The notes below the pieces were generated by a model that saw nothing but the letters and a program-made list of their open reading frames with translations, had not been told where the DNA came from and did not search any database. Shown piece after piece: positions 1-20,291 of a DNA stretch of 64,000 nt. Both the position numbers and the translations under genes were made by a program. Source of the DNA: Mycobacterium sp. EPa45 (GTDB taxonomy: Bacteria > Actinomycetota > Actinomycetes > Mycobacteriales > Mycobacteriaceae); contig NZ_CP011773.1 in NCBI RefSeq assembly GCF_001021385.1, forward strand, positions 496,001 to 560,000, given 5' to 3'. Each line of letters opens with the position of its first letter. Within the stretch, counting starts at the first letter, position 1.

Positions 1-113
1 GCAACGCTGCCGCCCGAAGAGTGTGCGAGGCCGCAGGATGCACGTTCCTCGGTGAGTTCGACATGTCGAATCGGCGGATGGCCCTCTACGCCTTCGACCG
101 CTCTGGGGTCTGA
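1..113 (+). CDS. C-terminal fragment of a probable GNAT-family acetyltransferase (5' end outside window)
   Basis: An open frame runs in from the left edge (codons in phase from base 3) and stops at TGA 111-113. It gives about 36 residues including [12 protein letters not shown] and NRRMALYAF. Family knowledge: the pattern of an alpha helix, a Gly-Glu-Phe strand and an Asn-Arg-Arg-Met-X-Leu-Tyr ending is common at the C-terminus of bacterial GNAT acetyltransferases. Only the tail is visible, so the acetyl-CoA binding loop cannot be checked. It ends 53 bases before the first iron box and appears unrelated in regulation to the gene that follows. Confidence 0.4.
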
Positions 114-165: not shown

Positions 166-184
166 TAAGGTTAGGCGTACCTAT
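166..184. promoter_or_regulatory. IdeR iron box 1 upstream of the GjpA-like gene
   Basis: TAAGGTTAGGCGTACCTAT matches the mycobacterial IdeR consensus TWAGGTTAGSCTWACCTWA at 17 of 19 positions by eye. IdeR with Fe(II) normally represses from such sites, so expression should rise in iron starvation. The box ends on the first base of the putative -35 element at 184-189. Confidence 0.85.
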
Positions 185-212
185 TGAAACTTAGGTAAGA
201 CTTAGCTAATCT
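184..212 (+). promoter_or_regulatory. Putative sigma-A promoter of the GjpA-like gene, overlapped by iron boxes
   Basis: A -35-like TTGAAA lies at 184-189 and a -10-like TAATCT at 207-212, with a 17-base spacer. Both overlap the flanking IdeR boxes, the classical arrangement for repression by occlusion. Transcription would begin near 219, leaving a leader of about 40 bases with a strong GGAGAAGGAG ribosome binding site at 243-252. Confidence 0.55.
191..209. promoter_or_regulatory. IdeR iron box 2 upstream of the GjpA-like gene
   Basis: TTAGGTAAGACTTAGCTAA matches the IdeR consensus at about 16 of 19 positions. It is centred 25 bases from box 1 and covers the spacer and part of the -10 element. 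Tandem boxes are typical of strongly iron-repressed mycobacterial promoters. Confidence 0.75.
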
Positions 213-257: not shown

Positions 258-2946
<2,689 letters not shown>

Positions 2947-2951
2947 CCGGC

Positions 2952-4547
2952 TCAGGGTTGTAACCGCGCGACGATCGAGCGTTTGTCGATCTTGCCCACT
3001 GCTGTCGTGGGCAGCACCGCCATCGGTGCGATCATGTCCGGGCGGCAGTGCGCGGCGACGCCGCGCGCATCGAGATGGGCGTTGAGCTCGGCGAGCGTGA
3101 CCGGTGCACCATGAGAAACAACTGCCGCGCAGATCTTTTCGCCCAGATACGGGTCGGGCAGCCCGACCGCGGCCGCAGCGGAGATCCGCGGATGCGCCAC
3201 CAGGTGGCTCTCCAGATCGAGCGCCGACACTGTCTCGCCGGCACGAAGGATGACGTCTTTGACCCTGCCGGTGACCTCCAGATAACCGTTGGGGAGGCGG
3301 CGTACCGTGTCCCCGCTGCGATAGAAACCATCCCGGGTGAACGCGCGCTGGTTCTCCGCCGCTGCCCGGAAATATCCGTTGATGGTGTACGGCCCGCGCA
3401 CCAACAGTTCTCCCGGCTCGCCGACTGGCACCTCGACGCCGGAGTCGTCCACGATGCGTAACTCGTCATCGTCGGCCAGTGGGCGGCCCTGGGTTGTCTC
3501 GAGGAGTTCCGGGGCGTCGTCGAGCCTGGTGTAGTTCAGCAGACCTTCGGCCATCCCGAATACCTGCTGTAGTCCGGGCGTCAGCGCCGACCGAATGTGC
3601 CGGGCATCTTCGGCGGCCAGCTTGGCGCCGCCGACTTGGAGCAACCGCAGGGTGGTCGGCTGCTGCTCCTCCCACTCGCAGGCCTGCGCCCACAGCCGCG
3701 CCAGCGCCGGCACCAGCGCGGTGACGGTGACGCCGTGGCGGGCGATCGCGGCGAACGCCGCCTCCGGGCTGGGGTCTCGGCCGAACACCACCGTGGCTCC
3801 GACGGTCATCGCGCCGAGCAAGCCGGGGCACGCAAGCGGGAAGTTGTGGCCCGCGGGCAGTACGACGAAATAGACGTCATCGCCGGTCATTTGGCACAAC
3901 TGGGCGCTGGCCGTGGCGTTGTAGACGTAGTCGTCGTGGGTGCGGGGGATGAGTTTCGGGGCGCCGGTGGTGCCACCCGACACCAGCAGCACGGCCGGAC
4001 CGCTGGTGTCTGGGTGCAGCTGCGGCGGTCGGGCATCACCGCCGCACAACTGCGACCACGACGTGTGCGACCCTGCAACACCGTCGACGATGATGTGCCG
4101 CAACTGGTTTGAGCGCTCCCGCAGCCGCTCGGCCGTTGCGCCGTAGTCGAAGCCGGCGTCGGTGCCCACGACGATCCCGACCGCGCCACTGACGTCGAGG
4201 AAGTGCGCCAACTCGCTATCGCGGTGGCCGGGCAGGCAGAGCACCGGCAAGGCGCCGGCCCGCAGCAGTCCGAAAAGCGCGATCGGGAACCGGCAAGAGT
4301 TGGGCAGTTGCACGAGAACGCGTTCCCCTGCGCCGATTCCCAGAGCATGGATCCCGGCAGCGGCCGCGTCTGCCCGCTGGTCGAGCTCGATGTAGGTCAA
4401 GCGGGTCGAGTCGTCAATGACCGCCGGGCGGTCCGGCCAACGCTGCGCTGCGGACCGCAAGATCTCATCGAGGGGCCGCCCGGCCCAGTAGCCCGCGTCG
4501 CGGTAGGACTTCGCGCGCTCTGCCGGAAAGGGGATGAAGCCGGTCAT
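2952..4547 (-). CDS. mbtA: Salicyl-AMP ligase MbtA
   Basis: MbtA adenylates salicylate with ATP and loads it onto the aryl carrier domain of MbtB. The 531-residue protein carries VSGGTTGAPKLIPRTHDDY (core A3 for aryl acids), the stretch AGHNFPLACPG, QVFGMAEGLLNYTR (A5 in aryl-acid form), YRSGD, GRVKDVILRAGE and the C-terminal lysine region TAVGKIDKR. These are hallmarks of DhbE/EntE-type ligases rather than amino-acid adenylation domains. ATG 4547 is preferred over ATG 4577. It has AGGAGG three bases upstream, and 4577 lies against the IdeR box and next to a TATGCT -10-like hexamer (4585-4580), so would probably not be transcribed with a leader. It diverges from mbtB across the shared operator. 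Confidence 0.96.
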   Translation of the reverse strand: MTGFIPFPAERAKSYRDAGYWAGRPLDEILRSAAQRWPDRPAVIDDSTRLTYIELDQRADAAAAGIHALGIGAGERVLVQLPNSCRFPIALFGLLRAGALPVLCLPGHRDSELAHFLDVSGAVGIVVGTDAGFDYGATAERLRERSNQLRHIIVDGVAGSHTSWSQLCGGDARPPQLHPDTSGPAVLLVSGGTTGAPKLIPRTHDDYVYNATASAQLCQMTGDDVYFVVLPAGHNFPLACPGLLGAMTVGATVVFGRDPSPEAAFAAIARHGVTVTALVPALARLWAQACEWEEQQPTTLRLLQVGGAKLAAEDARHIRSALTPGLQQVFGMAEGLLNYTRLDDAPELLETTQGRPLADDDELRIVDDSGVEVPVGEPGELLVRGPYTINGYFRAAAENQRAFTRDGFYRSGDTVRRLPNGYLEVTGRVKDVILRAGETVSALDLESHLVAHPRISAAAAVGLPDPYLGEKICAAVVSHGAPVTLAELNAHLDARGVAAHCRPDMIAPMAVLPTTAVGKIDKRSIVARLQP

Positions 4548-4582
4548 TGCCCTCCTGACGTAGGCCTGTGTGCGCATTCAGC

Positions 4583-4602: not shown

Positions 4603-4621
4603 TTAGGTGAGGCTGTTCTGG
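4603..4621. promoter_or_regulatory. Weaker second IdeR half-box before mbtB
   Basis: TTAGGTGAGGCTGTTCTGG keeps the left half of the IdeR consensus (TTAGGT.AGGCT) but loses much of the right half, matching about 13 of 19. Its position directly after the first box suggests a tandem operator, with the second site of lower affinity. It ends 15 bases before the mbtB start. Confidence 0.5.
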
Positions 4622-4636
4622 GTTAGGGAGGCGACA

Positions 4637-7600
4637 GTGACCGCGACTGAGGCGGCCATGATCACCGACCGGATCGCCGAGATCCTCGGCGTCGACCACT
4701 CCGATATCGACCCCGACGGCGACTTGATCGCGCAGGGGCTGGATTCGATCCGCATGATGACGCTGGCTGGACGGTGGCGTCGTGCGGGTTTCGACATCGA
4801 CTTCGCCAGGCTCGCGGCGGCACCGTCGGTCCGGGCCTGGGCCGGCTTGCTGGCGACGGCCACCCCCGCTGATCCGCTGTCGGACCACCCCCCGGTGGAG
4901 GGCGAGCCCTTCCCGATGGCGCCGATGCAGCACGCGATGTGGGTGGGCAGGCACGTCGATCAGCAACTCGGCGGCGTGGCCGCCCATCTCTATGTGGAGT
5001 TTGACGGTCCCGCGCTGGACCCCGAGCGGATTCGTGGCGCCGCCACCCAGCTGGTGGGGCGCCATCCGATGCTGCGGGTGCAGTTCTTCCCCGACGGGAC
5101 GCAGCGCATCGGCGCGGCACCGACGTCGTTCCCGGTCGAGGTCGTGGATCTGCGTGCCTGTCCCGACGTCGAGGAGCGGTTGGCCGCAATTCGCTCCGCG
5201 AAATCGCGGCAACAGCTCGACGGGCAGGTCTTCGAGCTCGCCTTGACTCTGCTTCCGGGGCAACGCAGTCGATTGCATGTGGACCTCGACATGCAAGCCG
5301 CGGACGCGATGAGCTACCGAGCGTTGATGGCCGATCTCGCCGCCCTGTACCGCGGGGACGCACTTCCCGACATCGGATACACCTATCAGCAGTACCGCCA
5401 ACACCTTTCGCCTCAGGACCGCTTCGCCGCCGACCGGCGTTGGTGGGCGGGGCGGGTGCCTGAGTTGCCCGACGCACCGGCGTTGCCGGTGGCACCCGTC
5501 ACCGAACAGACCGACCCGCAGCGCCCCGGGCGTCGCTGGCATTGGCTCGATTCCCGCACCCGCGACCAGCTCTTCGAACGGGCCCGCCGCCGCGGCGTGA
5601 CGCCCGCGATGACCCTGGCGGCTTCCTTCGCCGATACGGTCGCCAGCTGGTCGGCCGATCCACGCTTCCTCCTCAACGTCCCGCTGTTCGGGCGAGAACC
5701 GCTGCACCCCGACGTCGAGAAAGTGGTGGGCGACTTCACCTCATCGTTGCTGCTCGATGTCGACCTCGCCGCGGCTCACACCCCGACGCAGCGAGCCAAG
5801 GCGCTCCAGGACACCATGCACGAGGCGGCGGCGCACGCCTCGTACCCCGGTCTGTCGGTGCTGCGGGACCTCAGCAGGCACCACGGCACACAGGTGCTGG
5901 CCCCGGTCGTCTTCACCAGTGCCCTCGGCCTCGGTGAGCTGTTCTCTGCGGACGTGACAACACAATTCGGAACACCGGAGTGGATCATCTCGCAGGGGCC
6001 GCAGGTGCTGCTCGACGCCCAGGTCACCGAGTTCGCCGGCGGCGTGCTGCTCAACTGGGATGTCCGGGAGAGTGCCTTCCGTCCCGGCGTCATCGACGCG
6101 ATGTTCGCCCACCACATCGACGAGGTGCAACGCCTGGCTCGTGCTGACGACGCATGGGACAGTCCCCGGGGACCGCTCTTGCCACCGGCGCAGCGCGCGG
6201 CCCGGGACGCGGCGACGACCACCGTTGCCCGCAGCGGAAAGATGTTGCACGACGGGTTCTTTGATATGGCCGCGCGTCAGTCCGATGCACCTGCGGTCTT
6301 CAGCAGCATGGGCGAGCTGAGCTACGGCGACCTGCACCGGCAGGTGCTGTCGGTGGCCGCCGCCTTACGGGCCGCCGGACTTCCCGACGGGGGAACTGTC
6401 GCGGTGTTGGGACCCAAGACGGCCGAACAGGTGCCGGCGGTTCTGGGCATTCACGCGGCCGGCGGGGTCTACTTGCCGATCGGCGTCGACCAGCCGACCG
6501 AGCGCGCGCAGCGGATTCTCGCCGGCGGAACGGTCGACATCGCGCTGTGCTGTGATCCCGAGCTGCCCGATGTGCCTGTTCGGTGCATGACCGTCGGCGA
6601 CGCGATCACTCGGGGCAGCGCAGCCGAATTCGCTCCTGTCACCGGTGATCCGGACCGGTTGGCATATGTACTGTTCACCTCCGGCTCCACTGGTGAGCCC
6701 AAGGGTGTCGAGGTCAGCCACGACGCCGCGATGAACACCGTCGAGTTCATCGCTGAGCATTTCGGGCTCGGGCCCCAGGACCGGTGCCTGGCGCTGTCGA
6801 CGCTCGAGTGCGACATCTCGGTGCTGGACGTCTTCGCCACCCTGGCCACCGGCGGGGCGATCGTCGTGGTCGACGAGGAACACCGCCGCGACCCCGACCA
6901 CTGGGTGCGGCTCATCGAACGCCATCGGGTCACGGTGCTGCACTTCCTGCCGGGCTGGTTGGCGATGCTGCTCGACGTCGCCGGTCCGCTGCCGACGGTG
7001 CGGGTGGTCCCGACCGGAGGTGACTGGGTCACCCCGGTGATTGCACGCACGCTGCGCGACCGTGCCCCGAACGTGCGGTTCGCCGGGCTGGGCGGCGCCA
7101 CCGAGACCGCAATTCACAACACCATGTGCGAAGTGACCGACGTTCCGGAGCACTGGACCGCGATTCCGTTCGGAAAGCCGTTGCCGAACAACCGGTGCCG
7201 CGTCGTCGGCGCGGGCGGTGCGGACTGTCCGGATTGGGTGGTCGGCGAGCTGTGGATCGGGGGTCGCGGTCTGGCCCGCGGATATCGAGGCAGGCCCGAC
7301 CTGACCGCCGAGCGGTTCGTCGAACACGATGGACTGCGCTGGTATCGCACCGGGGATCTGGCCCGCTTCTGGCCGGACGGGACATGCGAGTTCGTCGGTC
7401 GCGCCGATCACCGGGTCAAGATCAGTGGCTACCGCGTCGAACTCGGCGAGGTGGAAGCGGCACTGAACCGGGTACCCGGCGTGCTCGGCGCCGTCGCGCT
7501 GACGGTACCCGGGCGCACCGGATCCCAGAGCCGGCTGGCGGCCGCTGTTCACCTGACAGCCGATGTCAGCGCGGGCTCGCTTCGGTCAGCACTGACCAAA

Positions 7601-8068
7601 GAGCTTCCTACGCACATGGTTCCGCAGCACTTCGAGGCCGTCGATCGGATCCCGTACACCGTGGGCGGCAAGGTCGACCGCAGCGCGCTCACCCGGCGGC
7701 TGGTGGCGGCCGTCGCCGCCGGAACCGAGCATCGGCCCCCGTCCGGCCCGGTGCAGTCAGCCCTCGCCGCGATCATCACCGACGTCCTCGGCGCGACCCG
7801 GGTCGGTGTCGACGACGACTTCTTCGCCCTCGGTGGCGATTCCGTCCAGGCCACCACCGTCGTGGCACGGATCCGGCAACGCCTGGACGTCGCGGCCGTC
7901 AGTGTCGCCGACATCTTTGCCGGCCGCACCGTCGAAGCCCTGGCCCACCGGCTCAGCGAGCTGGAGCCGGCCGACCGGCTCGAGGCCATCGCCGAGCTGT
8001 ACCTCGAAGTGGCCCTCATGGACACCGCCGAGGTCACCTTGGCGCTCACCCGGAGGTCTCATGACTGA
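4637..8068 (+). CDS. mbtB: Phenyloxazoline synthase MbtB (ArCP-Cy-A-PCP)
   Basis: This NRPS accepts salicylate from MbtA and condenses and cyclises it with Ser or Thr to a hydroxyphenyl-oxazoline. Order in the 1143 residues: aryl carrier (GLDSIR, phosphopantetheine Ser37); a cyclisation domain (about 90-510) with the diagnostic DxxxxDxxS motif at D218-D223-S226 in place of HHxxxDG; an adenylation domain (about 530-1010) with [11 protein letters not shown] near 681; and a peptidyl carrier (LGGDSV, Ser1069). The hand-read A-domain code (D-I-L-H-P-G-L-I-H) is compatible with Ser/Thr. GTG 4637 has AGGGAGG five bases upstream; an earlier in-frame GTG at 4607 would sit inside the iron box. No thioesterase domain follows the last carrier, and M. 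tuberculosis MbtB is longer (about 1414 residues, from memory). It overlaps mbtE by 8 bases. Confidence 0.95.
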
Positions 8069-11000
8069 CACCCTTGCCGATCCGTTCGATCCGCAGCGAC
8101 TGGAGTTGTTGCGCCACAGGCTGACCCAGAACGGCTTGCTGGCGAAGCTGAATGCTCCGGCAGACCCGGCCGTCATGTCCGACGGTCAGCGCCGGATGTG
8201 GTTCGTCCAATCCATCGACGACACCGGCGCGCTGCTGAACGTCTGCGTGTCGTATCGGTTGACCGGTCAGCTCGACTCGACCCGGCTGGAGGCGGCCGTC
8301 AACGCCGTCGCCGCACGGCACCCGATCCTGCGCACCACCTACCAGACCGACGCCGACGGCGAACCGCGCCCGACGGTCCACGACGAGCTCGCCCCGGGCT
8401 GGGCCGAACACGACCTTCGCGACCTCGGCGCGCAAGCCCGCAGCCTGCGTCTGGAAGTTCTGGCACAGCGCGCCTTCACCACCCCCTTCGACCTGAGTGC
8501 GCACGCACCGCTGCGGATCACTCTGGTCCGCATCGGTTCCGATGAACATGTGCTCTTGCTCACGGCACACCACATCGCCTGGGACGACGCATCGTGGCGG
8601 GTGTTCTTCGCCGACCTCAGCCGGGCCTACCAGAGCGGCGCCTTGCCGCCTGCGCCGGCTGCCGAACCCCCGGTCTCGGGCAGTGGCGACGCGGATGTGG
8701 CGTACTGGCGCGCGCTGCTCGTTGAACCGCCCGAACCCCTGGAGCTCCCAGGCCCGGCGGGATCCGCGGTGCCGTCGCAGTGGCGAGCCGAACGGCGCAG
8801 CACCCGACTGGACCCGCGTGTGGTCGACGCCGTCACCTCGTTGGCACACGAGCGCGGCGCAACGCCGTACATGGTGCTGCTCGCGGCGTTCTCGGCGTTG
8901 GTACACCGTTACACCCACGCCGACGATTTCCTCGTCGCCGCACCGGTTCTCAACCGCACCTCCAGCGACGTCATCGGCTACTACGGCAACACGGTCGCAC
9001 TGCGGGTGAGGCCGAACCGCTGGGGCACGTTCGCCGAGCTGGTCGACGCCGCACGCGACATCGCCGTGGGTGCCTTCGCCCATCAACGCGTGAATCTCGA
9101 TCGGGTGGTCCGGGAGCTGAACCCGGACCGGCGCTACGGTGTCGAACGGATGGCGCGGGTCGGCTTCGGCATGCGCCACTCGGACGGGGACGGCTTCAAC
9201 CCGCCCGGTGTCAGCTGCCGGCGGGCCGAATTTCGCGGCCAGTTCGCCCAATTGCCCTTGGGTTTCATGGTCGAGTTCAGCAGCGGCGACGCGGAGGTGG
9301 AGGTGGAGTACCTCCCCGAGGTGCTCGACCGTGGGCTGGCCGAGCAGATGCTGGACAGCTTCGTCGTCCTGCTCGGTGATGCCCTGGCCCAGCCCGACCG
9401 CATGCTGGCCGATCTGGCACTGCTCGACGACGCGGACACCGCATGGTTGTTCCGGACCTCCCGCGGCGAGGACTTCGATTGTCCGGCAATGACACTCGGT
9501 GATCTGATCACCGAGCAGGTGGTGCGGCAACCGGAGGCGACGGCCGTCGTCTATGAGGGCCGCCCCTACAGCTACCGGGAGATCAACGAGGCGGCCAACC
9601 GGCACGCACACTGGCTCGCCGCGCAGGGCGTCGGCGCCGAGGACCGGGTCGCGGTACTGCTGGAGAAGTCACCCGAGCTGGTGATCACCGCGCTGGGCAT
9701 CGCCAAAGCCGGCGCGGTGTACCTGCCCGTCGACCCTGAGTATCCCGCGGACCGCATCGCCTATATCCTGACCGACGCCGACCCCAAGATGGTGGTCCGC
9801 GAGCCGATCGACGTATCTGATCTTCCGGCCCACGATCCCGCCCGGGAGCTGGTGCGGCCGTTCGGTCCCGACAACACCGCCTATCTGATCTACACCTCGG
9901 GGTCGACCGGCCTGCCCAAGGGGGTAGCGGTACCGCACCGGCCGGTGGCCGACTACTTTCGGTGGTTCGCCCGGGAGTATCAGATCGGAACCGGCGACCG
10001 CCTGCTGCAGGTGGCCTCAACGAGTTTCGACGTCTCGATCGGCGAGATCTTCGGAATACTGGCCCAGGGCGCTCGCCTGGTGATCCCGCGCAGTGACGGC
10101 TTGCGCGATATCGGCTACCTCACCGATTTACTTCAGCGCGAAGCGATCACGTCGATGCACTTCGTCCCGTCGCTGCTGGGTTTGTTTCTGTCATTGCCCG
10201 GTGTCGAGCAATGGCGCACCCTGCGCCGAGTGCCGATCGGTGGCGAGGCGCTGCCCGGCGAGCTGGCCGACAAGTTCCATGCCACCTTCGACGCGCTGCT
10301 GCACAACTTCTACGGACCGACCGAGACGGTCATCAACGCCTCCCGCTACAAGGTTCAGGGCCGGCAGGGCACCCGCATCGTGCCGATCGGCACACCCAAG
10401 ATCAACACACAGATCTATCTCCTCGACGATGCGCTGCAGCCGGTTCCGCCCGGCGTGGTCGGCGAAATCTACATCGGTGGAACACAATTGGCCCACGGCT
10501 ATCACAACCGTCCGGCGCTGACGGCCGAACGGTTCGTCGCCGACCCGTTCAACCCCGGCGGGCGTCTCTACCGTTCTGGAGACCTGGCGCGGCGCAGTCG
10601 CGACGGTGACCTCGAGTTCGTCGGACGCGCCGACGAACAGGTCAAGATCCGGGGCTTCCGCATCGAGCTCGGAGAGGTGGCCGCGGCCGTCACCGTCGAC
10701 CCCAGCGTCGGCAACGCGGTCGTGATCGCCGCCGAGCTGCCGCACCTCGGCAAGAGCCTGGTCGCCTACATGGCACCGGCGGCAGGTGAAGTGGTGGACG
10801 TCGAACGGATCCGGATTCGCGTCGCCGCCGCGCTGCCCGACTACATGATCCCCGCCGCCTACGTCGTCGTCGACGAAATCCCGGTCACCGCCAACGGCAA
10901 GCTGGATCGGGCGGCGTTGCCGGCCCCCGAGATCGGGCCGGCGGTCGAATACCGGGTGCCGGTAACCGAAACCGAGCGCGCGGTAGCCGGGCTGTTCGTG

Positions 11001-14000
11001 GGGCTGCTCGGCGCCACCGAAGTGGGGTGCGACGATTCGTTCTTCGCACTCGGCGGGCACTCGCTCCTGGCTACGAAGCTGGTGGGCGCAATTCGCGAGG
11101 CCTGCGGCGTCGAGGTCAGCGTCCGCGATGTCTTCGAAGCCGGGAGCGTCGGCCGGCTCGCCGCGTTGATCGACGACCTCGGCGACGGCCCGACACGTCT
11201 CACCCGGCCGCCATTGGTCGCCGCCGCCGGCGACCCGGAGCGTTCCCCGCTGTCGGCCGCCCAGTTACGCAGCTGGTTCCAGTACCGTGTCGACGGTCCA
11301 AGCCCGGTGAACAACATCCCGTTCGCGGCCCGGTTGACCGGTCCGTGCGATGTCGACGCACTGGTCGCTGCGATCGACGATGTGATCGGCCGCCACGAGA
11401 TCCTGCGGACCGTCTACCGCGAGATCGACGGTGTGCCCCATCAGGTGGTCGAGACCGGTCAAGCCGCGCAGGAGCGGCGTCTCGACGGGCCCGACAGCGG
11501 TTGGCTGACAACGCAACTCGACGCCGAGCGCGCGCACCGGTTCGAGCTCGAAACGGAGCTGCCAATTCGCATCGCCGTGCTGCGCACACCTGAAGAATGT
11601 GTGCTGTCGATGGTCGTGCACCACATCGCCGCCGACCACTGGTCGGCGGGTGTGCTGTTCACCGACGTGCTCACCGCCTACCGCGCGCGGAGAGAGGGCA
11701 GTGCGCCGTCCTGGCCGCCGTTGCCCCTCCAATATCGCGATTACGCGGCCTGGCAGGTCCAGTTGTTGTCCGACACCCAGCGGATGGACGCGCAGCGGCA
11801 GTTCTGGATGCGCCAGCTCGACGGCCTTCCGGAGGACACCGGCCTGCGGCCGGATCTGCCGCGCCCGCCGATCGCCGGCGGTGCCGGCGCGGCCCTACCG
11901 CTGTACTTCGACAGCGGGGTGCGGGAACGGCTCACCGCACTCTGCCGTGAGCTCGGCATCACCGAGTTCATGTTGCTGCAGACCGCCGTGGCGGTCGTGC
12001 TGAGTAAGGCTGGCGGCGGCCACGACATCCCGTTGGGCACCCCGGTGGCAGGGCGCACAGACCCCGAATTGGACCGGCTGGTCGGCTTTTTCGTCAACAT
12101 CCTGGTACTGCGCAACGACCTGACGGGCAACCCCACCCTGCGCGAGACGCTGCTGCGGGCCCGGGAGATGGCCCTGGCGGCGTATGCCCACCAGGATCTT
12201 CCGTTCGACCGGGTGGTCGACGCGGTCAACCCGGTGCGGTCGTTATCCCGCAACCCGCTGTTCCAGGTCGTCGTCCACGTCCGCGAGGAACTCCCCGAAG
12301 ACCAGTTGATCGAAGCCGGACCTGAGGGCGACACCCGGTTCAGCGCACTGGAGCCGACGTTCGATGTGGCGCACGCCGACTTGAGCGTGAACTTCTTCGT
12401 CGGCGACAACGGCTATCGCGGCCATGTCATCTACCGAACCGAGCTCTATCACCGGTCGACGATGGAGCGCTTCGCGGGCTGGCTCGAGCAGGTCGTCGAG
12501 GCGTTCGCCGCCGATCCCGACACCAGACTGCGCGATGTGAACCTGCTCGGTGCCGACGAGCTACCCCGGGTGCTCGGCCAGAGCCGGGGCATCGCGTCAC
12601 CGCCCGACCGGCCGCGCACGGTGCCGGGTCTGCTCGAAGCGAGCCGGTCCTGGGGACATGACCGGGTAGCACTGCGAAGCGGAGACGACGAGCTCGATTA
12701 CGCTGCTTTGCACGCTCGTTCGGATCGGCTCGCGCATCTGCTGGTAGGTCATGGGGCCGGACCCGGTTCTCTGGTCGGGATGTCGATGCGCCGTGGAATC
12801 GATCTGGTGGTCGCGCTGGTGGCGATCATGAAGGCCGGGGCTGGTTTCTTCCCGCTCGATCCGACCTATCCCATGGCGCGCAAGCAGTTCATGCTCGATG
12901 ACGTCGAGCCCCCCGTCGTGGTCGTCACCGCTGAGGCCGGCGCCTCGCTGCCGGCCGCTGAGGGCGTCACGGTGATCTCCATGGATGACGCGGCGATCCG
13001 CGCCGAGCTGGAATCCACGGATCCCGTTGCCGCGCTGACCCTGCCGCACCCCGATGACCCGATGTACCTGATGTTCACCTCCGGATCCACCGGAAAGCCG
13101 AAGGGCGTCGTGGGCACCCACCGGGCGATGAGCACCAGACTGACCTGGCAGCTCAAGCATTACCCGGTGCCGGGCAATGACATCCGGCTCGCGCAGGCGC
13201 CGATGACCTTCCTGGAGGGGTGCATCGAAACCCTGGCCGGCCTGGCCGCCGGTGCCACGCTCATCGTTGCCGACGACGCCGAGCACCGCGACGCCGAGGC
13301 GATAGCGGGGCTGATCGAGCGGCACTCCGTGGTTCAGGTCACGGGTGTGGCCAGCCTGGTGTCGGCGCTCGTCGACAGCGCACCGAACGCGGTGCGCGCG
13401 CTGCGCCGGCTGGTGACCTGCGGTGAGCCGGTGAACGTCTCGCTGTTGCAGCGGTTGGTCGCCTGCGTGGGTGAGGGTTCGGCGCGAACCGTCGAGCTGC
13501 TCAATGCCATCGGTGCCACCGAGACCTCCGGCGCGTTGATCCGGGGTCCCCTGGATCTGCCCATCCCCAAGATCGGCAAACCGATGGAGGGTTCGCAGGT
13601 GTACCTGCTCGATGAGGCGCTGCAACCGGTCCCGGTCGGTGTCGTCGGCGAGCTGTATTACGCCGGTGAACAGATCGCGCGCGGGTATTGGAAGCAACCG
13701 GTGCTGACCGCGTCCCGGTTCATAGCGAATCCCTATGCTGCCGAGCCCGGTTCGCGCTTCTATCGCAGCGGCGATCGGGGCCGGTGGACCGAGGACGGGC
13801 GGCTCGAGTTCGTCGGCCGCACCGACCACCAGGTGAAGATCCGCGGATTCCGGGTCGAACTCGCCGAGGTCGAAGCGGCCCTGAAAGCCGCGGACGGAGT
13901 TGCCGTCGCGGCCGCGCGGACCTGGGACGGCCCCAGCGGCGCCGCGTTGGCCGGTTATGTCGTTCCGCGCGACCCGGTGGACGACCCGGCGGCATTCGCC

Positions 14001-14495
14001 GCCGCGGTGCGTGCGGCAGTGGCCGCGTCGCTGCCCGGCTACATGACACCGGCGACGATCTCGGTGCTCGACGTGATGCCCGCTACCGAGTCCGGAAAGC
14101 TGAACCGGCCCGCCCTGCCCCGGCAGGAGGTGCACACCACCGGTGCAAGGGAGCCGGCCCGCACCGACGCCGAGCGGACCGTCGCAACAGCGATGGAGCA
14201 GTTGCTCGACGTCGCCGAGATCGGCAGAGACGACGACTTCTTCGCACTCGGTGGGGACAGCATCCTGTCGGTCCAGCTCGCTGCGCGGATACGTGCGGCG
14301 GGTTTGACGGTCGAACCCCGGATGATCTTCTCGCATCCCACCGTGGCATCGCTGGCTGCCGCGATCGGCGACGGGTCCTCGGGTCAGCGTGAGAACCGCA
14401 CCGACACCCGGCACGAGGCCATGAGCGTGTCGGGACTGACAGCGGGAGATCTGGCCGCCCTGAAGTCGTCGTGGTCGAAGGTCCGCCCGTCGTGA
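8061..14495 (+). CDS. mbtE: Two-module NRPS, MbtE-like with an extra module (C-A-PCP-C-A-PCP)
   Basis: The 2144-residue NRPS starts at ATG 8061 (GGAGG at 8052-8056), overlapping mbtB by 8 bases. Module 1: condensation domain with HHIAWD at 170-175; adenylation domain with [11 protein letters not shown] near 611 and SFDVSIG (Asp657); carrier LGGHSL, Ser1001. Module 2: condensation domain with HHIAAD at 1187-1192; adenylation domain with [11 protein letters not shown] near 1672; carrier LGGDSI, Ser2067. In the second A domain the alpha-amine-binding Asp is Leu (TFLEGCIE, Leu1718) and A5 reads NAIGATET. Classical mycobactin assembly uses MbtE for the acylated hydroxylysine and the MbtC/MbtD polyketide synthases for the next unit. 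Here no PKS gene is present, and module 2 occupies that place between the MbtE and MbtF steps. All catalytic motifs of both modules are intact, so this is not a decayed fusion. It is coupled to mbtF by a GTGA overlap. Confidence 0.85.
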
Positions 14496-17400
14496 CCACA
14501 GCTGCGACCGACATCGAGGACGTCCTCGCACTATCGCCACTTCAATTGGGGCTGTATTCGCACGCCACGCTGATCGGACCCGACGCCGACGACCCGTACG
14601 TCATCGCAATGACGGCCGATGTGACGGGTCCTCTCGACGTCGCTCTGTTGCGCGACTGTGCGGCGGCGATGTTGGTCCGCCACCCCAACCTTCGGGCCAG
14701 CTTCTGGCACCAGGACCTGCCGCGACCCGTGCAGATCGTGCCGGCCGCGGTAGGACTGCCGTGGCAGCACGTCTGCGCTTCGGATGACCGCCAGGCCGCC
14801 GAGATCGAAAAACGGCAGTGCAAAGAACGTTTCATCCTGCAGGACGGACCACTGATCCGGTTCCTGCTCATCGAGCTGCCGGGCCGGCGCTGGCGCCTGG
14901 TGGTTACTGCGCACCACATCGTGATCGACGGCTGGTCGCTACCGGTATTCATCGGTGAAATGCTCACGCTGTACCGCGCCGACGGAGACTGCGACGCACT
15001 GCCCGTGCCGCGGCTCTACCGCGACTACATCGGCTGGCTCGCCGAGCGTGATCCACAAGCCGGCGAACTCCGTTGGCGCAGACACCTCGCCGGGCTGTCC
15101 GGACCGACCATGCTGTCGCCGGCTCTGGGTGGCGACGGCTCGGGGCTACCCAAACGAACCGAGCTCTCGCTACCGGCCGCCGACACCGATCGCCTGGCCG
15201 CCGCTGCGCGCGTCCGAGGCGTCACCCTCAACACGGTGTTGCAGATGGGCTGGGCGCTGATCGTGTCCCGACTCACCGACCGTGACGACGTCGTCTTCGG
15301 AGTGACCGTGTCCGGCCGCCCACCCGAACTCGCCGGTGTGGAGACCATGGTCGGCCTGTTCATCAACACTCTCCCGTTGCGCGTGCGCCTGGACCCCAGC
15401 AAGACTGTCGGCCAACAGTGTTCGGCGCTGCAGCGCGAGGCCGCCGAACTGCGCGACCACAGCTATCTGACCCATTCCCAGCTGCGCTCCCTGGCCGGCG
15501 TCGGCGAGATGTTCGACACCCTGCTGGTCTACGAGAACTTCCCGCCCGGCGACGTGGTCGGCGGCCACGAGTTCGCAGCCGACGACGTCCGCTTCCGGCC
15601 CGCAGCGATGGAGAGCCTGACGCATTTCCCGGTGACCGTCGCCGCATACCGCAATACCGCGGAGCTGACCCTGCTGGTCGAGGTCACCGACAACGCGCTC
15701 GGCGCGATGTCCCCCGATAGCCTTGGCCGGCGGGTGCTGCAGACGATGCGCCGCCTGATCGACAGGTGGGACCGGCCGCTCGGCGGAATCGACATTCTGC
15801 TCGATGATGAGGTGCCCCCCGCCGAGTTGTCCGCACCCACCGCTGACGGCATCGGGGTGGCGCAGCGATTCTCTGAATCTGTTGTCAAACACCAGGATTC
15901 GATCGCGTTGTGCTGGGACGACGGCCAGCTGAGTTACGCGGAGCTCGATGAGCGGTCAGATCGTCTGGCCGGCTTTCTCGCCGAGTCCGGTGTCCACGCC
16001 GAAACGCCGGTCGCAATCCAGCTGCCTCGCGGCGCCGGCTATGTGGTCGCGATGCTCGGTGTGCTCAAAGCCGGCGGCATGTACGTCCCGATCGAACCGG
16101 CGATGCCGGCCGGCCGGGTCAATTCGATTCTCACTCAGAGCGGCGCCACCATCGTCGTCGACGAGGCCATCATTACGGCGGCCCGCGCCGCGCGGCGATT
16201 CTCCACGCGGACCTGTCCGGGCCAGGCGGCCTACACGGTGTTCACCTCCGGTACCACCGGAGAACCCAAGGGCGTCATCGGGACTCACGCGGCGTTGCTG
16301 GCCTACATCGATGACCACGCCGGGCGGATGCTGAAGCCTGCCGCCGAACGGCTGGGTCGCCCGCTACGCATCGGCCACGCCTGGTCGTTCGCGTTCGACG
16401 CCGCCTGGCAGCCCCTGGCCGGGCTGCTGTTCGGCCACACCGTCCACCTCATCTCCGAAACCGACCGCAGGGACGCCGACGCGCTCGTCGGGATCATCGA
16501 CCGGTACGGGATCGACATGCTCGACGTCACCCCGTCGCTGTTCACTGGCCTGCGCCAGGCGGGTGTACTGGACTCGGGGCGGCTGTCGGTGCTCGCGCTC
16601 GGTGGCGAGGCTGTGGGCTCGGGGGAGTGGTCCGACATCCGAAAGTGCTGTGCCGAAACGCTGTTGGCGGCCCACAACTGTTATGGCCCAACCGAGGCGA
16701 CGGTCGAAGCGGTGGTCGCCGCGATCGCCGACCACGAGGCGCCGGTGATCGGCTACCCGACCCGGTGGACCACCGCCGTCGTGCTCGATTCCTGGCTGCA
16801 CCCCGTGCCCGACGGGGTGGTCGGCGAACTGTACTTGGCGGGTGAGCAGGTGACCCGGGGTTACCTCGGCCGACCCGCCGAGACCGCGGCCCGGTTCGTC
16901 GCCGCGGCGGGTGGTGGCCGGATGTACCGGACCGGGGACCTGGTACGCCGGAATCGCGACGGCGCACTGGCCTTCGTCGGCCGGGCCGACTCCCAGATAC
17001 AGGTCCGCGGACATCGCGTCGAGCCGGCCGAGATCGAGGCGGTATTGGAGGACATCCCGGGTGTTCGGCACGTTCACGTCGCGGTCCAGCGGCATGCGAC
17101 CGGCTCGCGGTTGGCCGCGTACATTGCCGGTGACGTCGCGGTGCCCGAGTTACGCAGACTGCTGCGAAACAGACTGCCGCGCTATATGACTCCGCACCGA
17201 TTGATCGTCGTCGACGCCATTCCGCTGACCGCGAACGGCAAGGTCGACGAGTCAGCGTTGGCTGCGACCGCGGCACCCGCCGACAGCCCCGAGCCGCCGA
17301 CCACCCCGACGGAGTTGGCGCTCGGCCACGCCGTCACCGAGTTGCTGGGCCTCTCCGCGGTCGACGTCGACGCCGACCTGCTCGAGCTGGGCCTGGACAG

Positions 17401-18766
17401 TATCGCCGCACTCTCGTTGGTGCAGCTCGCGCGCAGCAGCGGGCTGTCGCTACGCGCCCGGCTGGTCCTCGAGTGTGGCACCCTGCGTGAACTTGCCGCC
17501 GCCGTCGATCGGGACGCCGCCGAGGACCTCGTCGTCGGGACCGAACCGGAAGGCCCGATCCCGGCACTGCCCGCCGTGCACTGGCTTTACGAGCACGGTG
17601 ATCCGCGCCGCCTGTCACAGGTGGAGGCGATCCGGTTGCCTTCCGATGCCACCGCGGAGCGACTGCGCCTGCTGCTCGACGGCATCGCCGCCGGGCACGA
17701 GATGTTCCGCAGCCGCCTCGACCGCTCGACGATGACGTTCGTCCCGGCCGGGCGCGACACCATTCCGCTTGCCGAGGTGGTGGTGTCCGGTGAGCTCGCC
17801 GACGCCGTCGCCGAACACGCTGCCGCCGCGATCGAACGACTGGATCCCGAAGGCGGGCAGCTCACCGAAGCGCTGTGGCTGCACCAGGCCGGCGATGCCG
17901 GCGTCCTCGTTCTGGTGGCCCACGTGTTGGTGATGGACCCCGGATCGTGGCGCATCGTGCTGGGCGAGTTGATGGCCAACTGGTCGACTGCCGGTTGCGA
18001 GTCCGTCCCCGTCAGCGGTGAGCGGATCAGCTACCGCCGGTGGGCCCATATTCTCGCCGGCCGAGCGGCAGAGCTCGACACCGCCGACTTCTGGCTCGCG
18101 CAGGTCGACGGCGAGGATCCGGTTCTGGGAGGCAGGCGAATTCGCCCCGGAGTCGATCAGTTCGGTGACCTCGCGATCACCGTCACGGTTGCCGAAACCG
18201 ATGTCACCGCCGCCCTGCTCCGCGCTGAGGTGCCGATCCAGGACGTGCTGGCGCAGGCGTGTGCCCGCCTCATCGTCCGCTGGCGCGAGCAGCGGGGGCA
18301 GGTCAGTCCGGTTCCGCTGCTGGCACTGGAAGCGCACGGGCGCAATGACGCCGACGACACGGTCGGACTGCTCAGTGCGATCTATCCGCTTCGCATCCGG
18401 CCCGGTTACCCGCTACCCGAAATACCAGGGCAATCCACCGATTACGCGCTGCTGCGCTATCTACGACCGGATACCGCCGAACGGCTACGCGGCTTACGCG
18501 GACCCCAGGTGCTGCTGAACTATCTCGGCAGGCTCGACATGGACGCCGGTTCGCTGCTGGATCGGGGCCTCCTCGCCCACCTGTCGGTCATGACCGAACC
18601 GAACGTCGCGGTGCGCCACGAGCTGACCCTCGTCGCCGCCGTCGCCGGCGGCAAGCTGGTCACTCAGTGGCGGACGTTGCCGGATGTCTTCAGCGACACC
18701 GATATCGCTGTGCTGCAGCAGATGTGGAGTGACACCTTGCATGAGTTGGCAGAGGTGTCCGCGTGA
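14492..18766 (+). CDS. mbtF: Terminal mycobactin NRPS MbtF (C-A-PCP plus degenerate E/C-like domain)
   Basis: This NRPS of 1424 residues should add the last lysine, which in mycobactins closes to a hydroxy-caprolactam. The N-terminus ([25 protein letters not shown]) closely resembles M. tuberculosis MbtF. Domains: condensation with HHIVID at 141-146; adenylation with [11 protein letters not shown] near 584 and AFDAAW (Asp636); carrier GLDSIA, Ser970; a C-terminal epimerase/condensation-like domain of about 400 residues. The hand-read A code (D-A-Q-D-A-G-C-V-E) contains two extra acids, suiting a basic substrate. In the last domain HHxxxDG is HVLVMDP (His1144, Val1145, Asp1149), so the usual second His is missing; it probably releases or cyclises rather than epimerises. 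GTG 14492 overlaps the mbtE stop (GTGA). An in-frame GTG at 14471 is the alternative start. Confidence 0.95.
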
Positions 18767-20052
18767 CCACGCGGCTGGCGATAATCGGCGCCGGAGCCAA
18801 GGCCGTCGCGGTGGCCGCCAAGGCGGCGACATTACGCGACATGGGTGTCGCCACACCGGAGATCGTGGCGGTCGAGCGCACGGAGGTCGCGGCGAACTGG
18901 CGGGCGGGCGGCGGTTGGACTGACGGTCAGCACCGGCTGGGTACAAGTCCGGAAAAAGATGTCGGTTTCCCGTACCGGTCGACGATCCTGCCCGGCCGCA
19001 ACGGCGAACTCGACCAACGGATGATGCGGTTGAGCTGGCAGTCATACCTGGTGGCCACGGGTCGTTTCGCGGAATGGGTTGACCGCGGCAAGCCCGCTCC
19101 GACGCATGACATGTGGGCCAGCTACCTGCGCTGGGTGGCCGGCGCAGCCGGACTGAAAGTTGTTGACGGCGAAGTCATCCGGCTGTCACTCGATGGAGCG
19201 TCCTGGCTACTGCACACCGACACCAGCACCGTCGGGGCCGACGCGGTGATGATTACCGGGCCCGGCCAGCCGAGTCGATCGGTGCTGCCGGGGCATCCGC
19301 AGGTGCTGTCCATCGCACAGTTCTGGCAGCTGGCTTCCGAACGGGGCGCAATCGATGCCGAGCGCGTCGCGGTAATCGGCGGCGGCGAGACAGCGGCGTC
19401 GATGCTCAACGAGCTGTTCCGGCATCGGGTTTCCACGATCACCGTGATCTCGCCACAGGCCACGCTGTTCACCCGGGGTGAGAGCTTCTTCGAGAACCGG
19501 ATGTTCAGCGATCCGACCGATTGGGCCGGCCTGACACTCGCCGAACGGCGCGATGTGATGGCTCGCACCGACCGCGGGGTGTTCTCGGCACGAGTTCAGG
19601 ACTCGTTGCTGGCCGACGACCGGATCCGGCACCTGCGTGGCCGGGTCGCGCATGGCGTGGCGGCCGGCGACCGGATCCGCATCACCATGCACACCGACCG
19701 CCACGGTGAGCGGCTGGAGACGGTGCACGGATTCGACCTCGTCATCGACGGTTCGGGTGCCGACTCGCTGTGGTTCTTGCCGCTGCTGGGGCCGGACGTC
19801 TCCGACCTGCTCGAGGTCCGGCTGAACGGACCGCTGACCGGTGATCGTCTGCAACACGCGATCGGTGATGACCTGGCGCTGGCAGGCGTGGCGCCGAAGT
19901 TGTTTCTGCCCAACCTGTCCGGACTCAATCAGGGTCCGGGATTTCCCAACCTGAGCTGCCTGGGACTGCTCTCCGATCGCATTCTCGGAGCCAGGCCCGG
20001 CGCCCAGCCAAACCGATCCAACGGGAGGCACGTTGAGTACCAACCCATTTGA
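18763..20052 (+). CDS. mbtG: L-lysine N6-hydroxylase MbtG
   Basis: MbtG is an FAD- and NADPH-dependent monooxygenase that hydroxylates the epsilon-nitrogen of lysine, creating the hydroxamates that bind Fe(III). In the 429 residues (M. tuberculosis about 431) are the N-terminal dinucleotide motif LAIIGAGAKA, the mycobacterial variant of GxGxxG, at residues 4-13; a second, NADPH-type motif VAVIGGGETA near residue 202; and the C-terminal LFLPNLSGLNQGPGFPNL found in MbtG. GTG 18763 overlaps the mbtF stop in a GTGA junction. The presence of mbtG means that the product of this cluster is still expected to contain hydroxamates even though mbtC/D are missing. Confidence 0.95.
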   Translation: MTTRLAIIGAGAKAVAVAAKAATLRDMGVATPEIVAVERTEVAANWRAGGGWTDGQHRLGTSPEKDVGFPYRSTILPGRNGELDQRMMRLSWQSYLVATGRFAEWVDRGKPAPTHDMWASYLRWVAGAAGLKVVDGEVIRLSLDGASWLLHTDTSTVGADAVMITGPGQPSRSVLPGHPQVLSIAQFWQLASERGAIDAERVAVIGGGETAASMLNELFRHRVSTITVISPQATLFTRGESFFENRMFSDPTDWAGLTLAERRDVMARTDRGVFSARVQDSLLADDRIRHLRGRVAHGVAAGDRIRITMHTDRHGERLETVHGFDLVIDGSGADSLWFLPLLGPDVSDLLEVRLNGPLTGDRLQHAIGDDLALAGVAPKLFLPNLSGLNQGPGFPNLSCLGLLSDRILGARPGAQPNRSNGRHVEYQPI

Positions 20053-20245
20053 TGCCGAGGACGGCCGCTTCTACGTCCTGGTCAACGACGAGGAACAGCA
20101 CAGCCTGTGGCCGGCGTTCGCCGAGATCCCGGCCGGCTGGCAGGTCGCGTTCGGCGAGGCCGGCCGTGCGGAGTGTGTGGAGTTCGTCGAGCGAAGCTGG
20201 TCGGACATGCGGCCCAGGAGTCTGCGGTCAGCGACTCGACAGTGA
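20033..20245 (+). CDS. mbtH: MbtH-like protein MbtH
   Basis: MbtH-like proteins are small partners that bind NRPS adenylation domains and are often needed for their folding or activity. The 70-residue protein has the family signature NDEEQHSLWPAFAEIPAGW and the conserved ending CVEFVERSWSDMRP. The start is TTG 20033, with GGGAGG four bases upstream at 20023-20028; no ATG or GTG gives a full-length MbtH. It overlaps the end of mbtG by 20 bases in another frame and is the last gene of the mbt operon. The ESX-3 iron box begins 28 bases after its stop. Confidence 0.95.
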   Translation: MSTNPFDAEDGRFYVLVNDEEQHSLWPAFAEIPAGWQVAFGEAGRAECVEFVERSWSDMRPRSLRSATRQ

Positions 20246-20272: not shown

Positions 20273-20291
20273 ATTGGTTAGGCAAACCTAA
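20273..20291. promoter_or_regulatory. IdeR iron box upstream of the ESX-3 operon
   Basis: ATTGGTTAGGCAAACCTAA matches the IdeR consensus at about 16 of 19 positions, with an intact core GGTTAGGC.AACCTAA. It lies 36 bases before the eccA3 start. IdeR (and Zur) control of ESX-3 is established in M. tuberculosis; I did not recognise a separate Zur box here. Confidence 0.85.

What the first reader, a model, noticed from the sequence alone, without database searches (positions are those of the whole stretch)
8061..14495. Mycobactin cluster without polyketide synthases: an extra NRPS module stands where MbtC/MbtD should act
Seen: mbtI, mbtA, mbtB, mbtF, mbtG and mbtH are all present, but no ketosynthase or acyltransferase gene lies anywhere in the window. 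Between MbtB and MbtF there is a single 2144-residue protein, C-A-PCP-C-A-PCP. Known: in M. tuberculosis MbtE adds the acylated hydroxylysine and MbtC/MbtD supply the beta-hydroxybutyrate that bridges to the MbtF lysine. Inference: module 1 is the MbtE function and module 2 replaces the PKS unit, so the product would be a mycobactin-like siderophore whose linker is loaded by an adenylation domain. I do not know this arrangement from the literature.
Basis: partly seen in the sequence, partly recalled or inferred. Interest (0 to 1): 0.9.

Follow-up and report, generated by a model that had tools for sequence, protein, structure and literature searches.

The report
Mycobactin cluster that lost its PKS
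One branch of mycobacteria has lost the two polyketide genes normally needed to make the iron-scavenging molecule mycobactin, and an inherited loading domain, whose pocket has changed in that branch, probably supplies the missing link instead.

Summary
Window 8061-14495 encodes a 2144-residue C-A-PCP-C-A-PCP protein in a complete mbtI-A-B-E-F-G-H locus beside ESX-3. mbtC and mbtD orthologues are absent from the whole 6.18-Mb genome.

The reading is half right. Module 2 is not extra: the same module, adenylation domain (A2) included, stands beside MbtC/MbtD in many relatives (66 of 170 MbtC-bearing genomes). It is an old MbtE module; another lineage has lost A2 and keeps fragments. What is new is the absence of mbtC/mbtD in one well-supported clade (M. 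rhodesiae and relatives) that kept A2.

There A2 keeps its core motifs, is as constrained as A1, and differs from other A2s at 3 of 9 pocket positions. Where most A domains have the alpha-amino-binding Asp, all 88 A2 rows have Leu followed by Glu. So A2 most likely loads a short acid without an alpha-amino group (beta-amino or beta-hydroxy) as the linker. The substrate is not shown.

Against a simple swap: PKS genes were lost twice more in A2-less lineages, so another way round exists. My searches found no account of the PKS-less clade. This is a new variant of a known kind.

The parts
1..113 (+). 3' end of an mbtK-like hydroxylysine N-acyltransferase ORF (starts about 790 bases upstream of the window)
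   Evidence: PF13523 at G000:C1:495634-496065; ORF L095:15215-16114
166..209 (.). two IdeR-like iron boxes (166-184, 191-209), 4 mismatches each, upstream of the mbtI operon
   Evidence: the pair recurs in L033 and L035 at 4-5 mismatches; 3 sites at <=4 mismatches in the window against 0 in 40 simulated windows; consensus recalled
258..1538 (+). ORF of unknown function in front of mbtI
   Evidence: no Pfam hit; 78% identical ORF in G024
1543..2946 (+). mbtI, salicylate synthase
2952..4577 (-). mbtA, aryl-AMP ligase
4607..8068 (+). mbtB, PCP-Cy-A-PCP; overlaps mbtE by 8 bases
   Evidence: junction printed
8061..14495 (+). mbtE, C1-A1-PCP1-C2-A2-PCP2
   Evidence: orthologues
11244..12557 (+). 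MbtE C2 condensation domain (HHxxxD kept); 5 columns set the PKS-less clade apart
12603..14120 (+). MbtE A2 adenylation domain, pocket LEITVCAGA-K
14178..14366 (+). MbtE PCP2 (GGDSI attachment site kept)
14471..18766 (+). mbtF, terminal lysine NRPS (C-A-PCP-C)
18763..20052 (+). mbtG, lysine N-hydroxylase
20033..20245 (+). mbtH
20273..20291 (+). IdeR-like box in front of ESX-3 eccA3 (20328-22160)
   Evidence: 3 mismatches, expected 0.00 in 100 shuffles

Best explanation
This is a mycobactin-type assembly line that lost mbtC and mbtD once, in the ancestor of the M. rhodesiae clade, and now runs on MbtE's own second module. Shown by sequence: mbtC/mbtD orthologues are gone from the genome; A2 is not an insertion but an old MbtE domain; A2 is intact and constrained; its pocket differs from that of PKS-bearing relatives. 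Inferred: A2 activates a short free acid that lacks an alpha-amino group and loads it on PCP2; C2 joins it to the hydroxylysine chain coming from module 1; MbtF adds and cyclises the last hydroxylysine. The linker would be a beta-amino acid (beta-alanine type, giving an amide) or a beta-hydroxy acid (giving the usual ester). I cannot tell which, and lean slightly to the beta-amino acid.
For: MbtC/MbtD orthologues absent genome-wide in 4 of 4 clade genomes tested and present in 6 of 6 other relatives tested by the same searches. Over 248 genomes, the 12 unbroken A2-plus/MbtC-minus genomes are exactly those whose A2 is at least 79% identical to the window's; the next is 71%. The clade is one side of a branch with full support (16 rows, SH-aLRT 100, quick tree). 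A2 is open, without stops, in the 12 genomes, with the A3, A5, A7, A8 and A10 motifs where aligned (motif names recalled; sequences). Pocket: LEITVCAGAK in 16 of 16 clade rows (14 distinct genomes); LEMTV[GS]NGAK in 65 of the other 72 rows, and of the remaining 7 five only miss the last position and two vary at 322 or 331. 3 of 9 pocket positions are among 18 non-overlapping columns of 496, hypergeometric P 0.003; control Mycolicibacter against other non-clade rows: 28 such columns, none in the pocket. dN/dS of A2 equals that of A1 in the clade (0.116, 0.113) but not in two other groups (0.212 against 0.129; 0.157 against 0.112). Asp235 is Leu and 236 is Glu in all 88 rows; an acid at 236 after a non-Asp 235 recalls beta-alanine codes (recalled). 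PMC12003420 (passages) states that mbtD deletion prevents mycobactin in M. smegmatis, so the usual route cannot run without it. PMC12305651 (abstract and passages): kasichelins, phenolate-oxazoline siderophores with beta-alanine or beta-aminoisobutyrate linkers, are a precedent.
Against: PKS genes were also lost in two A2-less lineages (G053/G092 and G075), so a route that needs no A2 may exist and could serve here too. L235/E236 are shared with PKS-bearing relatives whose linkers are, from memory, hydroxy acids, so E236 need not mean a beta-amino acid. The pocket enrichment depends on the contrast: clade against Mycolicibacter alone gives 3 of 9 among 86 columns, P 0.20. The dN/dS contrast is modest: against C2 as yardstick the A2 ratio is 0.83 in the clade and 0.94 and 0.85 in the other groups, and the Mycolicibacter bootstrap overlaps (7% of draws). 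All clade members are one evolutionary event. Pocket positions were placed by motif anchors recalled from GrsA, not by a structure; structure prediction never ran. No product is known.
Confidence: 0.63

Rival explanations
1. Another PKS or the fatty-acid machinery makes the beta-hydroxyacyl unit in trans and passes it to PCP2; A2 is only carried along.
For: Independent PKS losses in A2-less lineages (G053/G092, G075) keep C2 and PCP2, which implies some supply in trans. The window's genome has other ketosynthases and a free-standing acyltransferase-like protein at 1611148.
Against: A2 is unbroken in the 12 clade genomes, is as constrained as A1, and its pocket changed on the clade's branch. 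The best other ketosynthase is only 44% like MbtC and sits in a 3738-residue frame whose like occurs in 7 of the 9 other genomes.
Confidence: 0.17
2. No linker is added: module 2 is skipped or the cluster makes a truncated or altered chelator.
For: No product is known; A2-less PKS-less MbtE genes also exist.
Against: C2, A2 and PCP2 keep their motifs, C2 and A2 have low dN/dS over 13 sequences, and the MbtE C-terminal tail is conserved with PKS-bearing relatives.
Confidence: 0.1
3. Sub-case of the best explanation, not additional to it: A2 is a long-standing loader of free beta-hydroxy acids in all A2-bearing mycobacteria (PKS-made where the PKS exists, from primary metabolism here), so the product is an ordinary ester-linked mycobactin by another supply route.
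For: A2 is under purifying selection in groups with the PKS too (dN/dS 0.16-0.21) with a nearly fixed pocket.
Against: The pocket differs at 239, 301 and 322 in the PKS-less clade; Glu236 suits an amine better than a hydroxyl (inference).
Confidence: 0.28

Closest known systems
Mycobactin (mbt-1) cluster of M. tuberculosis and M. smegmatis
   Same: mbtI, A, B, E, F, G, H families present, iron boxes, product presumably salicyl-oxazoline plus two hydroxylysines
   Different: no mbtC and mbtD; MbtE keeps a complete second A domain; locus adjoins ESX-3 and mbtK
MbtE of slow growers and Mycolicibacter (C-A-PCP-C-A-PCP with MbtC/MbtD)
   Same: same module order, 57-66% identity over module 2 in the four read first, same Leu-Glu at 235-236
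   Different: those clusters have MbtC and MbtD; A2 pocket has Met239, Gly/Ser301 and Asn322
Nocobactin NA cluster of Nocardia (PMC7413640, section 9 read)
   Same: NRPS line with a second C-T unit after the lysine module of NbtD (C-A-T-C-T)
   Different: NbtD has no second A domain; NbtB/NbtC PKS supplies the hydroxy acid
Mycobactin Ab of M. abscessus (PMC9505556; abstract, section 2.7 and passages read)
   Same: an unusual mycobactin whose use is tied to ESX-3
   Different: long alkyl hydroxy acid predicted to be made by MbtC/MbtD, which this clade lacks
Kasichelins (PMC12305651, abstract and passages read)
   Same: phenolate-oxazoline siderophore with a beta-amino-acid linker added by an NRPS module
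   Different: Streptomyces, one hydroxyornithine, epimerisation domains, other gene order

Membership tests
mycobactin biosynthesis cluster | salicylate synthase MbtI and salicyl-AMP ligase MbtA | tested here: met
   MbtI TIGR03494 above cut-off; MbtA 65-83% over full length to 8 relatives' loci; for MbtA no NCBIfam model passed its cut-off among the 25 of 104 shown
mycobactin biosynthesis cluster | MbtB, MbtE, MbtF, MbtG, MbtH orthologues | tested here: met
mycobactin biosynthesis cluster | PKS pair MbtC (KS) and MbtD (AT-KR-ACP) | tested here: not met
   no orthologue genome-wide; none in the window
mycobactin biosynthesis cluster | mbt-2 genes mbtK, mbtM, mbtN (mbtL not tested) | tested here: inconclusive
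   mbtK-like gene next to the locus; no MbtN at E<=1e-60; best MbtM match 37%; G001, which has MbtC/D, gives the same negative result for both
mycobactin biosynthesis cluster | product is a mycobactin with a hydroxy-acid ester linker | not testable with these tools
   needs isolation and MS/MS
nocobactin cluster | NbtD C-A-T-C-T with NbtB/NbtC PKS | tested here: not met
   second A domain present, no MbtC/D-like PKS pair; Nocardia sequences themselves were not compared
alpha-amino-acid adenylation domain (A2) | Asp235 in the pocket | tested here: not met
   Leu in all 88 rows; position placed by recalled motif anchors
beta-amino-acid adenylation domain (A2) | acid at 236 instead of 235, activates a beta-amino acid | tested here: inconclusive
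   Glu236 present; the rest of the recalled beta-alanine code does not match; activity not testable here

The most novel reading that the evidence does not exclude
The M. rhodesiae clade makes an amide-linked mycobactin: A2 of MbtE loads a beta-amino acid (beta-alanine, 3-aminobutyrate or beta-aminoisobutyrate) where the mycobactins I know of have a PKS-made beta-hydroxy acid ester, so the molecule is purely nonribosomal. A2 is an ancestral second loading route in mycobacterial MbtE, still under selection beside the PKS in slow growers.
Probability: 0.33. Interest if true: 0.75.

Novelty: new variant of a known kind. Interest (0 to 1): 0.6.

Why it matters
mbtC and mbtD are usually counted as part of the mycobactin pathway, and deletion of mbtD prevents mycobactin in M. 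smegmatis (PMC12003420, passages). A clade that lives without them, with a complete and probably iron-controlled cluster, is a natural experiment on how the central unit reaches MbtE. It also raises a question that I did not meet in the papers seen: why many slow growers and Mycolicibacter keep a constrained A domain in MbtE beside the PKS. An amide link would resist esterases that could open the usual ester, which bears on siderophore stability and recycling (inference).

Tried and rejected
The idea that A2 and the PKS are strictly alternative (never both lost) was tested over 248 genomes and failed. Of 186 genomes with an MbtE C2 orthologue (E<=1e-110), 66 have A2 and MbtC, 103 MbtC only, 13 A2 only (12 unbroken plus G087, a decayed cluster), and 4 neither (G053, G075, G092, G201). 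For three of those four I read the locus and found no PKS genes there; G201 was not read. One MbtC-bearing genome (G107) had no C2 match at that level.

That A2 is vestigial in PKS-bearing species was rejected on dN/dS 0.16-0.21 and intact motifs. A search of the viral collection for A2 confirmed no relative among 48 pattern matches. Among the best 120 of 6631 proteins listed by A2, the two from outside the mycobacteria by their given names were 38-40% identical and carried no substrate name. A solved-structure search gave only general NRPS relatives in the 60 of 242 shown. Paper searches: (no paper); none of their listings, nor the passages I opened, described a PKS-less mycobactin clade. The 2011 phylogenetic study of the mbt cluster (cited in PMC9505556) is not held under the DOI that I recalled for it and was not seen. 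M. talmoniae (L182) has an A2 with the PKS-type pocket letters, but its contig shows neither MbtB nor PKS genes upstream, so its state is open.
Full report
Observation. The window is bases 496001-560000 of a 6.18-Mb single-contig mycobacterial genome. Domain scans confirm mbtI, mbtA, mbtB, mbtF and mbtG, and a 2144-aa protein at 8061-14495 with two C-A-PCP modules; mbtH lies at 20033-20245. ESX-3 genes follow from 20328. mbtB and mbtE overlap by 8 bases, so nothing of a PKS remains between them.

Are mbtC and mbtD elsewhere? Not as orthologues. With MbtC and MbtD of relative G001 as queries over 10 genomes, orthologues appear in all 6 genomes that have them at the locus (MbtC 67-73%, MbtD 47-53%, leaving out the self-match of G001). 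In G000, G004, G018 and G024 the best MbtC match is 44-45%, inside open frames of 3690-3738 residues whose like is listed in 4 of the other 6 genomes too, and the best MbtD match is at most 34%. All 13 MbtC matches of G000 were listed and lie outside the window; for MbtD 10 of 13 were listed, so I also searched the window directly with two MbtC and two MbtD proteins: nothing better than E 0.37.

Is module 2 an extra module? No. In stretches of up to 20 kb by mbtG from relatives, tblastn finds three states among the loci that hold mbtE: MbtC plus an MbtE whose second module has C and PCP but no A (7 loci); MbtC plus an MbtE with a full second module (G001, G006, G016, G022); and no MbtC with a full second module (G004, G018, G024, like the window). 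The alignment of MbtE shows A-domain-like remnants between C2 and PCP2 in A2-less proteins, so A2 was once there. A scan of named genomes with an alignment of 8 A2 domains found 92 relatives, of which the best 80 loci were kept. Twelve of them (M. rhodesiae JS60 and DSM 44223, M. vinylchloridicum, M. pinniadriaticum, Mycobacterium sp. ENV421, P1-5, shizuoka-1, BK086, M26 and three metagenome-derived or uncultured ones) have mbtB before mbtE and no PKS. Of the other 68, 61 have MbtC and MbtD, 2 have MbtD only and 5 could not be judged (L128, L149, L168, L182, L185: short contigs, an open case, and a decayed M. genavense locus).

Distribution over 248 genomes drawn evenly from the genus (at least 95% complete): A2 in 79 (E<=1e-120), MbtC in 170 (E<=1e-150), an MbtE C2 orthologue at E<=1e-110 in 186. 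Cross-table of the 186: A2 and MbtC 66; MbtC only 103; A2 only 13 (12 unbroken, plus G087 with stops); neither 4. For G053, G075 and G092 of the last group the locus was read, and mbtC/mbtD are missing between mbtB and mbtE; G201 was not read. This goes against the neat idea that one of the two supplies is always kept. MbtC homologues much below 60% identity would not pass the cut, so a distant replacement elsewhere is not excluded in these four.

Tree. C1+A1+C2 of 54 MbtE sequences (quick method): all 16 A2-plus/PKS-minus rows form one side of a branch with full support; A2 state needs one change; PKS state needs three (this clade, G053/G092, G075). The root is not inferred, so the direction (loss rather than gain) rests on the A-domain remnants and on the spread of MbtC/D.

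Pocket of A2. Five more read LEMTVGNGA with the last position missing, and two are variants (L128 LEMTVSDGGK; L182 LEMTVSNGG, last position missing). Leu235 and Glu236 are common to all 88. Clade against slow growers alone: 20 columns, 3 in the pocket, P 0.004. The control contrast (Mycolicibacter against the other non-clade rows) has 28 such columns and none in the pocket. Clade against Mycolicibacter alone has 86 such columns and 3 in the pocket, P 0.20, so the enrichment depends on the comparison. A few of the 67 are from contigs too short to show the PKS state.

Constraint. Nei-Gojobori dN/dS within groups: PKS-less clade A1 0.113, A2 0.116, C1 0.192, C2 0.139, MbtF-A 0.178 (13 sequences); slow growers 0.129, 0.212, 0.244, 0.226, 0.246 (36); Mycolicibacter 0.112, 0.157, 0.232, 0.184, 0.187 (12). 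Of the 73 sequences (the window included) with complete A1 and A2, nine were in no group because I cut the slow growers by locus number, and three more lacked a control domain. The A2/A1 ratio is 1.05 in the clade against 1.68 and 1.44 (bootstrap means); the order is reversed in 0.7% and 7% of draws. Measured against C2 the contrast nearly vanishes (0.83, 0.94, 0.85). So A2 is under selection in all groups, and is somewhat tighter, relative to A1, in the PKS-less clade.

Regulation. One IdeR-like box with 3 mismatches stands before eccA3, and two with 4 mismatches stand before the ORF that precedes mbtI. Three sites at up to 4 mismatches against none in 40 simulated windows. The pair recurs in L033 and L035 at 4 and 5 mismatches; in L036 overlapping sites (4 and 5 mismatches) lie at the start of mbtI instead. 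Weaker sites (5-6 mismatches) lie between mbtA and mbtB. The cluster thus looks iron-controlled and in use.

Lipid tail. PMC9505556 (section 2.7 and passages) describes two places for the tail of mycobactins: hydroxylysine through mbt-2, or the PKS unit. In this genome an mbtK-like gene adjoins the locus, but MbtN gives no match at E<=1e-60 and MbtM only 37% paralogues; MbtL was not tested. G001, which has MbtC/D, gives the same negative results, so this is a hint only.

Mechanism. Steps shown: gene content, order, intact domains, pocket change. Steps inferred: A2 activates a short acid without an alpha-amino group, loads PCP2, and C2 links it to the hydroxylysine chain before MbtF finishes. 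Glu236 after Leu235 recalls beta-alanine codes, and kasichelins show that such linkers occur in phenolate-oxazoline siderophores (PMC12305651, abstract and passages), but the same Leu-Glu stands in relatives whose linkers are, from memory, hydroxy acids. I put beta-amino and beta-hydroxy acid near even, with a slight lean to the first. C2 also differs at 5 columns between the clade (16 rows) and 78 others, one of them 3 residues before the HHxxxD motif.

Known or new. NbtD of Nocardia is C-A-T-C-T with PKS partners (PMC7413640, section 9 read). Searches of the paper library listed nothing that describes this clade's cluster; the library lacks most subscription papers, and the 2011 study of the mbt cluster was not seen.

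Noticed in passing
MbtE between C2 and PCP2 in the loci of G012, G013, G014, G017, G020, G021 (L038, L042, L041, L050-L052): A2-less MbtE proteins carry A-domain remnants (such as VYVLDE...GVVGEIY...RTGERGRW) between C2 and PCP2, molecular fossils of a lost A2 domain.
   Followed up: partly
L205 (G053), L207 (G092), L206 (G075): Two further independent losses of mbtC/mbtD, in A2-less MbtE lineages. In L207 a luciferase-like monooxygenase gene (PF00296, 11505-12365, opposite strand) stands between mbtB and mbtE; L205 has a similar gap of about 1.1 kb.
   Followed up: partly
L044, L045, L047, L048: A second kind of locus: mbtG and mbtA side by side, mbtI about 3-13 kb further on, and no MbtB/E/F orthologue within the 20 kb read; G006 has both kinds, with an MbtC-like protein of 51% near the second.
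   Followed up: no
L098:12246-16000 (G018): mbtL-like and mbtM-like genes stand beside mbtK at the mbt locus, with only about 72 residues matching mbtN, as if mbtN were a remnant.
   Followed up: partly
window 258-1538: ORF of 426 aa with no Pfam hit, under iron boxes, just before mbtI; 78% identical ORF in G024.
   Followed up: no
G000:C1:1611148-1612305: Acyltransferase-like protein in a 539-residue frame (34% to the MbtD acyltransferase region), also in G004; not among the listed matches of G018 or G024.
   Followed up: no
L208 (G087) and L185: The M. genavense mbt locus is decayed: MbtE and MbtF appear in pieces, with stops in A2.
   Followed up: no
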